A DNA stretch of 64,000 nucleotides, taken from NCBI RefSeq assembly GCF_000473265.1, contig NZ_KI421511.1:4253560-4317559 (forward strand). Direction: 5' to 3'. This document shows positions 27,082 to 30,441 of this stretch, piece after piece (positions within the stretch are counted from its first letter, which is position 1; each line of letters begins with the position of its first letter). A model generated the notes under the pieces. The model was given only the letters and a program-made list of their open reading frames with translations. It did not search any database and was not told the DNA's origin. The DNA is from Amycolatopsis thermoflava N1165 (GTDB taxonomy: Bacteria; Actinomycetota; Actinomycetes; Mycobacteriales; Pseudonocardiaceae). The position numbers and the translations under genes are program-made.

Positions 27082-27360
27082 CTAGCGGGCGCCGCCGGCC
27101 ACCGCGGGCAGGATGGTGACCGTGTCGCCGTCCTTGACCTCGGCGTCCAGACCGCCGGCGAAGCGCACGTCCTCGTCGTTGACGTAGACGTTGACGAAGC
27201 GGTGGAGCTTGTCCTCCTTGACCAGGCGGGCCTTGAGACCGCCGTGGCGCGACTCGATGTCGTCGATCACCTCGGCCACGGTCTTGCCGGCCGCCTCGAC
27301 CGACTTCTGACCACCCGTGTGCGTGCGCAGGATGGTGGGGATGGACACGGTCACGGCCAT
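27082..27360 (-). CDS. cysO: Sulfur carrier protein CysO with two-residue C-terminal extension
   Basis: Ubiquitin-like MoaD/ThiS-family protein of 92 residues that carries sulfide as a C-terminal thiocarboxylate to CysM. The beta-grasp sequence ends DTVTILPAVAGGAR. The two residues Ala-Arg after the Gly-Gly are absent from the M. tuberculosis protein as I know it, so maturation by the neighbouring JAMM protease would be needed before activation. It starts 54 bases after mec and ends 3 bases before cysM. Confidence 0.94.
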   Translation of the reverse strand: MAVTVSIPTILRTHTGGQKSVEAAGKTVAEVIDDIESRHGGLKARLVKEDKLHRFVNVYVNDEDVRFAGGLDAEVKDGDTVTILPAVAGGAR

Positions 27361-27414: not shown

Positions 27415-27831
27415 TTATTCCGTGATCTCCACGGGCTCTTCGGTGACGACCCCGTCGACGATCCGGTACGACCGGAACTCGTGCGTCTCGGGGTCGCGGG
27501 TGGAGACCAGCACGTAGTGCGCGTCGGGCTCGGAGGCGTAGGACACGTCGGTGCGTGACGGGTAGGCCTCGGTCGCGGTGTGCGAGTGGTAGATCACGAC
27601 CGGGACCTCGTCGTTCGCGTCCATCTCGCGGTAGAGCTTGAGCAGGTCACCGGAGTCGAACTCGTAGAACGTCGGCGAGCGCGCCGCGTTCAGCATGGGG
27701 ATGAACCGCTCGGGGCGGTCGGAGCCCTCGGGCCCGGCGATCACGCCGCACGCCTCGTCCGGGTGGTCCCGGCGAGCGTGGGCGACGATCTCGTCGACGA
27801 GTTCACGGCGGATCCGAAGCACGACGGACAT
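27415..27831 (-). CDS. mec: Mec-type JAMM metalloprotease
   Basis: A 138-residue Mov34/JAB1 zinc peptidase. In mycobacteria Mec releases cysteine from the CysO-Cys adduct. The JAMM motif HSHTATEAYPSRTD is complete, with two histidines and the aspartate, plus an upstream glutamate in HPDEACGVIAG. Next to a CysO with residues beyond Gly-Gly, it may also trim that tail. ATG at 27831 lies one base after the stop of the DUF2017-like gene, so it is translationally coupled. Confidence 0.94.
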   Translation of the reverse strand: MSVVLRIRRELVDEIVAHARRDHPDEACGVIAGPEGSDRPERFIPMLNAARSPTFYEFDSGDLLKLYREMDANDEVPVVIYHSHTATEAYPSRTDVSYASEPDAHYVLVSTRDPETHEFRSYRIVDGVVTEEPVEITE

Positions 27832-27832
27832 C

Positions 27833-28330
27833 TTACGTGCCGGACACCGGGGGTTCACAGAGTGAGACTGCGCACGCCTGCGCCAGCGCGGCCTGCGTGT
27901 AGTGCAACCAGAAGAGCCGGACCTCGTTCTCGGTGACCGGCAGCCGGGTCCAGGCGCCGACCGTCCACCGCGGTTTGCGCACGTACAGGGCGGGGGCGTG
28001 GGCGACCATGGTGAACCAGGCCCGCAGCCAGGCGCGGTCCAGGGTGAACACCGTCTGCCCCCGGTAGTTGAGCACCACCGCGCGCACCGCCGCGGTCACG
28101 CTCTCCCGCATCGCCGCGCCGTGCCGCTCGCGGAACGCCTTGCTGTCGCGGATGAGCTGGTAGGCGTCCGGGAACAGGTCCTCGTCCCGCAGCCGCCGCC
28201 TGCCCCGGTAGCCGGTCTCCAGCGCGGTCAGCAGATCACGGCCGATCGCGTACAGGCACTCGGCGACGTTGGGTGACATCTCGACCAGGACGTGCCCGCC
28301 CTCCCCCGGCACGGCGTTCAGGAAGTCCAC
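27833..28330 (-). CDS. Diverged DUF2017-like protein
   Basis: A 165-residue protein without an obvious database name. It keeps the layout of the DUF2017 protein encoded at 29588-30145: an N-terminal helix, then DEDLFPDAYQ (compare RLLPDYHK), a middle helix AAMRESVTAAVRAVVLN, LDRAWLRAWFTMVAHAPAL (compare [18 protein letters not shown]) and a final FWLHYTQAALAQA (compare [15 protein letters not shown]). Like its canonical counterpart it follows a clpS-type gene with almost no gap (one base). The paralogy is my inference from pattern and order; identity is low. Confidence 0.65.
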   Translation of the reverse strand: MDFLNAVPGEGGHVLVEMSPNVAECLYAIGRDLLTALETGYRGRRRLRDEDLFPDAYQLIRDSKAFRERHGAAMRESVTAAVRAVVLNYRGQTVFTLDRAWLRAWFTMVAHAPALYVRKPRWTVGAWTRLPVTENEVRLFWLHYTQAALAQACAVSLCEPPVSGT

Positions 28331-28331
28331 C

Positions 28332-28577
28332 TCAGCGCCCCTGCAGCGTCGCGTGCAGGCCGAGCACCTGGAGGTGGGCGACCAGTTCCTCGGCCTGCTC
28401 CCGCCCGGCGCACCGGGTCAGTTCCGCGCGCCCGTGCTCGATGACGTCTTCCACGAGTTCGAGTCCACGCTCGAACGGCAGGCCGAAGACCTCGTGGATC
28501 GCATAGGCGATCGACGGGGAGGAGTTCATGTGGTCGTGCACCACGACCGCCCAGGCCCGCTCTGCGCTCACGGCCAT
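28332..28577 (-). CDS. Diverged ClpS-like adaptor
   Basis: An 81-residue protein that reads as a ClpS core: ERAWAVVVHDHMNSSPSIAY, EVFGLPFERGLELVEDVIEH, GRAELTR and the final LQVLGLHATLQGR. It aligns along its length with the canonical ClpS at 30142-30441. The Asn-Asp-Pro-Val-Asn-Leu-Met loop of the canonical copy is changed and one residue shorter. The pocket methionine and histidine of LMLDVHH are replaced by LVEDVIE, so binding of N-degrons is unlikely. GGAG lies 8 bases before ATG at 28577. It may be a Clp regulator or a decoy adaptor. Confidence 0.78.
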   Translation of the reverse strand: MAVSAERAWAVVVHDHMNSSPSIAYAIHEVFGLPFERGLELVEDVIEHGRAELTRCAGREQAEELVAHLQVLGLHATLQGR

Positions 28578-28601
28578 CAGATCGCTCCGTGACCAGCCGC
28601 G

Positions 28602-29591
28602 TTACTCGAACGCTTCCGGCCACACGTCCCGGTACGCGGGCACGCCCGCCACGCCCACCGCGCTCACCAGCCCGTGCACGCACGCCCGCGCGAAGACCCG
28701 CGCCGCCGCCGCGCACAGCTCGTCCAGTGCTGCCGCGCGTGTGGTCACGCCGAAGGGGCCTTCGGCCGCCGGCAGGTCCCGCGCGCCCGTGGCCAGCGCG
28801 AACACCGTGTCGCCGTCGAACATCGAGTGCGCCGGGCGCACCGCGCGGGCCAGGCCGTCCTGCGCCGCCACCGCCAGGCGGCGGCACTCGGCCTTCGACA
28901 GGTCCGCGTCGACCGCCACCACGCCGATCGTCGTGTTCAGGTCCGTCTCCCGGCCGGGCACCGACGCCGCCCGGTCCGGCCAGCGCACCCCGAACTCGCC
29001 CGCCACCTCGTGGTCCGCCGCGTACGGGCGGCCGCTGTCGAACGACACCGCCTCGCCGCGCGCGTTGACCACCGCGAGCGCCCCGACCACGAAGTCGCCT
29101 ACGCGCTCGCTCGCCGTGCCGGTCCCGCCCTTCAGCGAGCCGACCGCCGCCCCCGCGCCCGCGCCGACGCAGCCCTGCTCGACCGCGGTGCCCGCCGCCT
29201 CGCAGGCGGCGTACCCGAACGAGGCGTCCGGCCGGTTGCCCCAATCCGACCGCGGCAGGTCGAAGATCACCGCGCCGGGCACGATCGGCACCACCTCGTG
29301 CGGCTCGACGCCGACCTGGAACCCGCGGTCCCGTTCGGCCAGCCACCGCATGACCCCGTCCGCGGCCGCCAGCCCGTAGGCGCTGCCGCCGGACAGGCAG
29401 ATCCCGTCGACGTACCGGACCAGGTTCTCCGGCTCCAGCAGGTTCGTCTCACGCGTGCCGGGCGCGCCGCCGCGCTGGTCGACCGCGCCCGTCGTGCCCG
29501 GCGGCGCGAGCACGACCGTCGTGCCGGTCGCCCAGCCGTCCCCGATCCGGTGGTGGTGCCCGACCAGCACCCCCGGCACGTCCGTGATCAC
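28602..29591 (-). CDS. P1 (S58, DmpA-type) peptidase, Rv1333-like
   Basis: Self-processing N-terminal nucleophile hydrolase of 329 residues. It has the opening [12 protein letters not shown], the substrate-site GICLSGGSAYGLAAADGV, the VGSLKGGTGTASERVG region and the predicted autocleavage/nucleophile site DLN-TTIGVVAVDA around Asn219-Thr220. It probably acts as an aminopeptidase, amidase or esterase on peptides. GTG at 29591 overlaps the DUF2017 stop. In M. tuberculosis the same peptidase sits in the same place, but directly before mec. Confidence 0.9.
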   Translation of the reverse strand: MITDVPGVLVGHHHRIGDGWATGTTVVLAPPGTTGAVDQRGGAPGTRETNLLEPENLVRYVDGICLSGGSAYGLAAADGVMRWLAERDRGFQVGVEPHEVVPIVPGAVIFDLPRSDWGNRPDASFGYAACEAAGTAVEQGCVGAGAGAAVGSLKGGTGTASERVGDFVVGALAVVNARGEAVSFDSGRPYAADHEVAGEFGVRWPDRAASVPGRETDLNTTIGVVAVDADLSKAECRRLAVAAQDGLARAVRPAHSMFDGDTVFALATGARDLPAAEGPFGVTTRAAALDELCAAAARVFARACVHGLVSAVGVAGVPAYRDVWPEAFE

Positions 29592-30145
29592 GCCGTCAGT
29601 GCCTGGACCAGGCTTTCCTGCACCCAGGTCAGCCAGTGGTAGACGCCGAGGTGGGGCGAGCGCGGATCGTCCTCCGGCAGCTCGTCGGGCATGTCCTCGG
29701 TGACGTCGAGCGCGGTGCCCAGCGCCAGCCGGACGTCGTTGAGCGCGGACAGCCACGCGTCGGCCTGCTCGTAGGTCAGCCTCACGTCGCCGCCGTCGCG
29801 CGGCAGGGTCTCCATGACCACCGCGGCCACGCCGACCTTCGCGTCGACCAGCTCGGGCTCGTGCAGCGACCGCAGCGCGCTCGCCGAGTCCAGGACCTCC
29901 TGGCTCGGCGTGTCCGGGTCGATCTTGTGGTAGTCCGGCAGCAGGCGGGACAGCACCGGGTCGTCCGGCGACTGCGACGGGCCGGTGCGGATGCCGGTCA
30001 GCTCGGCCAGCGGGTCCTGCGGCGCCTCCTCGGCGCGCGCCCGCAGCATGTCCTCGAGCTGGCTCACCAGGCCGCGCAGCACCGCGGCCTCCTGCTGCTC
30101 GAACCCGGCGTGCACGCGGCCGCCCTTGCGCTGCCAGCCCCTCAC
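29588..30145 (-). CDS. DUF2017 family protein (ClpS partner gene)
   Basis: A 185-residue, mainly helical protein with the DUF2017 pattern [40 protein letters not shown], an [19 protein letters not shown] helix and the final [15 protein letters not shown]. This is the Rv1332-type gene that almost always follows clpS in Actinobacteria. GTG at 30145 overlaps the clpS stop (GTGA), so a functional link to ClpS or Clp proteolysis is likely. The molecular function is unknown. Confidence 0.88.
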
Positions 30146-30441
30146 GAAGTGTGCTCCATCGTCGCCCACAGTCCCGCGGCGTGCAGTTTCGTCACGTCCG
30201 CCTCGACCTTCTCCTTCGTGCCCGAGGACACCACCGCGCGCCCCTTGTGGTGCACGTCCAGCATCAGCTTGGTGGCATGGTCGCGGCTGTAGCCGAACAG
30301 CTTCTGGAAGACGTACGTCACGTACGACATCAGGTTCACCGGGTCGTTCCAGACGATCGTCTGCCACGGCTGGTCTTCGGCGCCTGCCTCGGTGCCGAGT
30401 GGTTCAACCTGCGTCTGTTCGGATGCGACAGGCGTGGTCAT
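30142..30441 (-). CDS. clpS: Clp protease adaptor ClpS
   Basis: Adaptor that delivers N-degron proteins to the Clp unfoldase. The 99-residue protein has the actinobacterial core [34 protein letters not shown] and [10 protein letters not shown], with the substrate-pocket residues (NDP...LM and the H in DVHH) intact. ATG at 30441 is chosen with GGGG upstream, giving a disordered 30-residue N-terminus. It is the first gene of the minus-strand run down to cysM and divergent from pncB. Confidence 0.95.

What the first reader, a model, noticed from the sequence alone, without database searches (positions are those of the whole stretch)
27833..30441. A second, degenerate ClpS/DUF2017 gene pair inside the clpS-mec-cysO-cysM operon
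Seen: minus-strand order is clpS, DUF2017, S58 peptidase, an 81-residue ClpS-like gene, a 165-residue gene, mec, cysO, cysM, with overlaps or gaps of 1-55 bases. The 81-residue protein keeps the ClpS fold pattern (EVFGLPFERGLELVEDVIEH, LGLHATLQGR). It lacks the NDPVNLM loop and the pocket Met and His of LMLDVHH. The 165-residue protein keeps DUF2017 landmarks (DLFPDAYQ, AWLRAWFTM, FWLHYTQAALAQA). Known: clpS and the DUF2017 gene are almost always paired in Actinobacteria. Inference: the module was duplicated and the copy has taken a new role, for example a Clp modulator that no longer binds N-degrons, perhaps tied to cysteine synthesis.
Basis: partly seen in the sequence, partly recalled or inferred. 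Interest (0 to 1): 0.85.

Follow-up and report, generated by a model that had tools for sequence, protein, structure and literature searches.

The report
Fast-evolving ClpS–AosR paralogue pair
Inside a well-conserved cysteine-making operon, this soil actinomycete carries a second, old and quickly changing copy of a protein-degradation adaptor gene and its neighbour; the two copies nearly always travel together and are sometimes fused into one protein, which suggests that they work as one unit.

The parts
28332..28577 (-). ClpS-like gene (81 aa; called ClpS2 here), first gene of the paralogous pair
27833..28330 (-). DUF2017/AosR-like gene (165 aa; called D2017b here), second gene of the pair
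   Evidence: No hit on its own; family profile A5 homologous to AosR: 12 of 17 members hit Pfam DUF2017, 29 of 29 fetched class-level hits are canonical AosR, hhalign E 7e-5 but probability 63% over 154 columns
27850..28600 (-). Exchanged, fast-evolving cassette: in 150-nt windows identity to A. tucumanensis is 0.62-0.83 here and 0.93-1.00 outside
   Evidence: Sliding identity; topology tests
27820..27870 (-). Conserved element upstream of mec, overlapping the 3' end of the 165-aa gene: GTGAAC (27858-27853), 17 nt, TAAGAT (27835-27830), 7 nt, GTG start (27822-27820); candidate leaderless mec promoter
   Evidence: TAAGAT in 18 of 19, GTGAAC in 17 of 19 genus genomes, spacing 7 nt in 16 and 6 nt in 2; the generic sigma-70 scan found no site
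30142..30441 (-). canonical clpS
   Evidence: Pfam ClpS 85.6 bits; NCBIfam NF000668 151 bits
29588..30145 (-). canonical DUF2017/aosR gene
   Evidence: Pfam DUF2017 189 bits; NCBIfam AosR NF051854 237 bits against cut-off 260
28602..29591 (-). S58 peptidase gene, upstream border of the slot
   Evidence: Pfam Peptidase_S58 222 bits
27415..27831 (-). mec (JAB), downstream border of the slot; likely true start is GTG at 27822
   Evidence: Pfam Prok-JAB 108 bits; GTG present in 19 of 19, an in-frame upstream ATG in 15 of 19
27082..27360 (-). cysO
   Evidence: Pfam ThiS 70 bits
26128..27078 (-). cysM
   Evidence: Pfam PALP 248 bits

Best explanation
The two genes are an old, lineage-specific paralogous copy of the clpS-aosR pair that works as one unit. 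Shown: common descent with ClpS and DUF2017/AosR, near-obligate linkage in fixed order, both domains in one reading frame in two genomes, open reading frames, faster evolution than the six neighbours, and discordance with both flanks. Inferred: the two proteins bind each other (or act on one complex). The ClpS-like half docks on a Clp unfoldase and presents ligands through a remodelled pocket that in most members could still read a free amino end. The AosR-like half supplies or regulates the client, by analogy with AosR, named with SigH as activator of mec-cysO-cysM. The window's allele type (window, G009, A. deserti) has also lost the amine contacts, so here the ClpS-like part probably serves as a docking or partner-binding module rather than as an N-end reader.
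For: ClpS fold. DUF2017 homology. ClpS-like domain directly upstream on the same strand of 62 of 66 DUF2017-like domains, and of 39 of 41 genes in the 37 loci chosen by the DUF2017-like hit alone. One-frame fusions in L178 (G1058) and L192 (G973). Tandem pairs in L191, L193, L195, L202. One side of a 100/100 branch for DUF2017-like rows. 60 unique ClpS-like domains: Asp35 60/60, position 34 N or D 51/60, position 36 D or E 41/60, His66 32/60, Met62 6/60, Met40 7/60; 34 canonical domains all have N34, D35, P36, M62, H66. Medians over 28 species pairs: aa identity 0.65 and 0.69 against 0.92-0.99 for the six neighbours. Ratio of median dN to median dS within allele types 0.25-0.50, so still constrained.
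Against: No interaction, binding or degradation was tested, and no model of the 165-aa protein could be made. A dN/dS of about 0.6 overall is also what relaxed selection gives. hhalign of the two DUF2017 alignments gives only 63% probability. The faster change of the half with the pocket goes with higher dS there and is not seen family-wide. I told canonical from paralogous ClpS rows by the NLMS motif, so Met40 in all canonical rows is by definition. The N-terminal ends of the ClpS-like genes were anchored on the window's start, so their equal length at that end is by construction. An indel error could fake a fusion. ClpS-like support as one group is weak (69/96).
Confidence: 0.6

Rival explanations
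1. The pair is a dispensable duplicate drifting under relaxed selection; exchange and loss are neutral side effects of recombination at a permissive slot.
For: Intact slot pair missing from 8 of 19 genus genomes: decayed in G001 and G002, deleted in G007, replaced in G012, absent in G003, G004, G010, G013; frameshifted second copy in G008 (L039) and a copy in two pieces in L170; dN/dS about 0.6 overall, 1.02 in one species pair; other genes can occupy the slot.
Against: Both frames without internal stop in 8 of 8 species at 35% divergence; within-type dN/dS 0.25-0.50; fixed order, tandem copies and two fusions.
Confidence: 0.25
2. The pair is a conflict module (guard, decoy or adaptor against phage, plasmid or rival effectors); its fast-changing alleles follow a fast-changing target.
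For: Two allele types crossing species borders within an operon whose other genes are 92-99% identical; recurrent loss, duplication and relocation; in G012 the same slot holds a GmrSD_N protein and a HipA protein.
Against: No PADLOC hit at E<=0.01 for either window protein or two relatives of the 165-aa one; G012 is one case: of 60 other family slots, picked because no slot pair was known there, one holds the pair and the few genes called in the rest did not look defence-like when read by eye, not searched; no consistent excess of dN over dS.
Confidence: 0.2
3. A regulator of the mec-cysO-cysM genes.
For: These genes are called SigH/AosR-activated in Mycobacterium tuberculosis (one passage of PMC11439070); many pairs lie directly upstream of mec.
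Against: A 17-row clade and a separate copy lie away from mec; in 48 of 60 sampled family loci, picked as above, the slot is 200 nt or shorter; the element upstream of mec is conserved without the pair.
Confidence: 0.12

Closest known systems
ClpS N-degron adaptor (Pfam PF02617, NCBIfam NF000668; M. smegmatis ClpS 9ayn-9b1p)
   Same: Fold; Asp35; Asn38 (46 of 60); the C-terminal Ala-Glu pair (58 of 60 each); the curated model matched by most members is NF000668 (15 of 16).
   Different: Window protein under both curated cut-offs; Met40 and Met62 lost in most members; window allele lacks Asn34 and His66; nearly always paired with a DUF2017-like gene.
DUF2017 / AosR (Pfam PF09438, NCBIfam NF051854)
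   Same: Aligned over 154 columns; placed after a ClpS gene; a (L/F)PD ... R..H pattern in both.
   Different: 165 against 185 aa with gaps around the PD motif; 23% identity to the window's AosR; the window protein has no Pfam or NCBIfam hit.
Plant ClpS1-ClpF binary adaptor (recalled, not looked up)
   Same: A ClpS working with a dedicated partner protein.
   Different: ClpF is not DUF2017 (recalled); no sequence link was looked for.

Membership tests
ClpS adaptor | ClpS alpha/beta fold | tested here: met
ClpS adaptor | Score above curated family cut-offs | tested here: not met
   Window: Pfam 14.1 of 23 bits, NCBIfam 34.5 of 86 bits
ClpS adaptor | Amine-binding residues Asn34, Asp35 or Asp36, His66 (roles recalled) | tested here: not met
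   Window: Asp35 kept, residue 34 deleted or His, 66 Ile; in the family D35 60/60, N or D at 34 in 51/60, H66 32/60
ClpS adaptor | Hydrophobic pocket with Met40 and Met62 (roles recalled) | tested here: not met
   Window Ser40, Val62; family Met40 7/60, Met62 6/60
ClpS adaptor | Binds the N-domain of ClpC/ClpA and delivers N-degron clients | not testable with these tools
   Clp_N domains are present in the genome (10 matches); binding is not computable here
DUF2017 / AosR | Profile homology to DUF2017 | tested here: met
   12 of 17 members hit PF09438, best 2.4e-18; reverse hits 29 of 29 fetched are canonical AosR; hhalign probability 63%; the window member alone has no hit
DUF2017 / AosR | Same protein as AosR (orthologue) | tested here: not met
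   Separate group, 100/100; the genome has canonical aosR at 29588-30145
DUF2017 / AosR | Partner of SigH-RNA polymerase in oxidative stress (recalled) | not testable with these tools
   One passage on SigH/AosR read; the primary paper is not held
Known anti-phage systems (PADLOC) | Match to a PADLOC model | tested here: inconclusive
   No hit at E<=0.01 for either window protein or two relatives; PADLOC holds only described systems

The most novel reading that the evidence does not exclude
Pseudonocardiaceae turned the clpS-aosR pair into a diversifying two-part (sometimes one-chain) conflict module: the ClpS-like half docks on the Clp protease and reads varying ligands or serves as bait, the AosR-like half senses or signals, and alleles differing at the very residues that bind a free amino end are kept and swapped between species because the target (phage, plasmid or rival protein) keeps changing.
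Probability: 0.2. Interest if true: 0.85.

Novelty: new variant of a known kind. Interest (0 to 1): 0.62.

Why it matters
My searches of the held library found no explanation (DUF2017: 0 papers; CysO with ClpS: 0 papers). A paralogous pair that stays together outside the operon, and lies in one reading frame in two genomes, makes a direct ClpS-AosR partnership the leading idea and gives one-chain proteins in which to test it. It also shows ClpS-fold proteins that trade the standard N-degron pocket for other residues, and allele exchange at one spot in an otherwise slowly changing operon.

Tried and rejected
A recent local duplication: contradicted by the trees; the date of the duplication is open (AU test for grouping with Pseudonocardiaceae AosR p=0.147; with Pseudonocardiaceae ClpS p=0.034). 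Descent of the ClpS-like gene from another actinobacterial ClpS type (L208-L219): not in the best tree, but not excluded (AU p=0.343). A general defence hotspot between S58 and mec: 48 of 60 sampled slots are 200 nt or shorter and the rest hold few called genes. Stronger diversification of the half of ClpS-like with the pocket: 29 of 42 columns vary against 14 of 30, but dS is higher there too and the family-wide means are 0.49 and 0.51, so not claimed. Discordance could come from differential loss of tandem copies as well as from exchange; both fit. Plasmids: no tblastn match for the window's ClpS-like protein. Viral contigs: the scan was not accepted with this alignment and was not repeated, so viruses are unsearched. 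The sigma-70 scan found no promoter; the mec element is proposed from conservation and spacing alone.

Full report

Who has it. In 19 genus genomes ClpS2 is in the slot in 11, and G008 and G018 carry a second pair elsewhere. In the family, D2017b is found at E<=1e-5 in 85 of 390 genomes and 19 of 46 genera; I did not inspect every hit. Outside the family: of the 17 phylum loci that the ClpS2 profile found at E<=2e-14 in 396 genomes besides the own one, 16 are canonical ClpS with the NLMS motif and one (L096) is another ClpS type; the four outside-family loci fetched in the order search (L055, L057, L063, L071) are canonical. Weaker hits were not read.

The pair stays together. Of 69 DUF2017-like domains in the loci read (L041, L043, L045 left out as doubles of L076, L077, L075), 3 are canonical aosR (L205-L207). 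Of the other 66, 62 have ClpS2 directly upstream on the same strand; the misses are the decayed remnant of G001 (two pieces), L189 and L198. Three genes (L039, L042, L170) are counted as two pieces each. Part of these loci were chosen by a ClpS2 hit; in the 37 loci chosen by the D2017b hit alone (L168-L204), 39 of 41 genes have ClpS2 upstream. Three loci have two tandem pairs in the mec slot (L193, L195, L202) and one has two elsewhere (L191, the first ClpS2 weak). In L178 (G1058) and L192 (G973) both domains lie in one open reading frame; assembly error was not excluded, but these are two genera. All 17 rows of one D2017b clade (96/96) are copies away from mec; L038 moved separately; the remaining 29 rows lie beside S58 or mec. 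That the pair arose in the slot is an inference, since the place where AosR joins within the slot copies is weakly supported (86/60).

Not a fresh duplicate. D2017b rows form one side of a 100/100 branch (47 against 27 AosR rows; ten near-copies and six fragmentary loci were left out beforehand). ClpS2 rows form one side with weaker support (69/96; 36 chosen of 60 unique, against 32). Whether the duplication happened within the family is open: the AU test does not reject grouping D2017b with Pseudonocardiaceae AosR (p=0.147), and weakly rejects grouping ClpS2 with Pseudonocardiaceae ClpS (p=0.034).

A fast-evolving, exchanged cassette. I compared the eight closest species that carry the slot pair (G000, G009, A. 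tucumanensis G017, A. thermalba G015, A. deserti G006, G016, G008, G018); the three more distant carriers G011, G014 and G005 served as outgroup. Median amino-acid identity over 28 pairs: clpS 0.960, aosR 0.978, S58 0.921, ClpS2 0.650, D2017b 0.694, mec 0.978, cysO 0.967, cysM 0.987. Median dS is 0.47 and 0.36 in the pair against 0.11-0.31 in the others (highest in S58). The ratio of median dN to median dS is about 0.6 against 0.04-0.15; within allele types it is 0.25-0.50. Along the locus the window and A. tucumanensis are 0.93-1.00 identical outside and 0.62-0.83 inside about 27850-28600. Upstream genes and downstream genes agree in grouping window, G009 and tucumanensis (100/100 and 95/92) and thermalba with deserti (80/84 and 88/87); the pair groups window, G009 and deserti (100/99) against the other five. 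The pair data reject the two flank groupings (AU p 1e-46 and 2e-8), and upstream and downstream data reject the pair's grouping (p 2e-41 and 4e-49); such tiny values are extrapolated, the log-likelihood gaps being 85-173. Read on the flank trees, type A (window, G009, deserti) needs at least two changes. Exchange by recombination explains this; differential loss of old tandem copies would too. Other genus members have an empty slot (G003, G004, G010, G013), a clean deletion that leaves the last D2017b codons (G007), decayed remnants (G001, G002) or other cargo (G012).

What the ClpS-like proteins keep. Positions were read through the profile alignment to E. coli ClpS; residue roles are recalled. 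In 60 unique ClpS2 domains Asp35 is 60/60, position 34 is Asn 29 or Asp 22, position 36 Asp 35 or Glu 6, His66 32, Met62 6 (Ala 30, Thr 17), Met40 7 (Phe 16). In 34 unique canonical domains N34, D35, P36, M62, H66 are 34/34; Met40 is so by my NLMS criterion. So most of the family keeps the amine-binding loop and has remodelled the pocket. The window's type A lost residue 34 (or has His there) and has Ile66; type B keeps Asn or Asp at 34 in 5 of 5 and His66 in 3 of 5.

Link to cysteine genes. The naming of mec-cysO-cysM as SigH/AosR-activated in M. tuberculosis (one passage, PMC11439070) makes a regulatory link thinkable. But immediately upstream of mec, overlapping the 3' end of D2017b, 18 of 19 genus genomes carry TAAGAT (the 19th TAGGAT) 6-7 nt before a GTG, and 17 of 19 carry GTGAAC further upstream, with or without the pair, so mec probably has its own leaderless promoter. 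The generic scan found none. In 60 further family loci, picked from 144 S58-bearing genomes because no slot pair was known in them, mec follows S58 on the same strand in 60, the gap is 200 nt or less in 48, and one carries the pair.

Reading. I commit to an old paralogous ClpS-AosR module acting as one complex, with a ClpS-like half of changed ligand binding and a still Clp-linked role (0.6 for the whole; descent and linkage are nearly certain, the biochemistry is inference). Neutral drift and a conflict role are the main rivals; the regulator-of-mec reading is less likely.

Literature. Searches: AosR or mec-cysO-cysM, DUF2017 (0 papers), ClpS-like/actinobacteria/N-degron, Rv1332/Rv1331, ClpS with Amycolatopsis, AosR with SigH, ClpS/actinobacteria/paralog, CysO with ClpS (0 papers). 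From listings and passages only, I saw no description of this pair. Passages read: PMC11439070, PMC7159879 (L12/ClpS domains inserted in conflict-system proteins of Bacteroidetes), PMC12419801, PMC10149685 (M. tuberculosis ClpS interacts with ClpC1). The AosR paper itself is not held; its content is recalled.

Noticed in passing
L244 (genome G012), between S58 and mec, about 3.1 kb: The slot of the pair holds less G+C-rich genes here (55%): a GmrSD_N (DUF262) protein and a HipA protein.
   Followed up: partly
L038 7199-12161 and L039 7696-12648: A second pair in G018 and G008 stands directly before two small proteins, an FtsK/SpoIIIE ATPase (907 aa), a 118-aa protein and a YbaB-like protein; the DUF2017-like gene is in two frames in G008.
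   Followed up: partly
L090 7895-8896 and L172 6299-7291: In genus g7 a ThiF-family gene lies between S58 and the pair, in an operon that also encodes a ubiquitin-like CysO and a JAB protease (Pfam on the L090 copy only).
   Followed up: partly
L086 7281-8934: Pair placed between a 108-aa protein without Pfam hit and a macro-domain protein.
   Followed up: partly
window 29588-30145: The canonical AosR of this genome has no cysteine, so a disulphide switch as recalled for M. tuberculosis AosR cannot operate here.
   Followed up: partly
L208-L219 (phylum genomes): Another actinobacterial ClpS type, typically NDDHNTF with Ala at position 62, resembling the ClpS-like pocket.
   Followed up: partly
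window 27815-27831: mec probably starts at GTG 27822, not at ATG 27831: the GTG is present in 19 of 19 genus genomes, an in-frame ATG just upstream in 15.
   Followed up: yes
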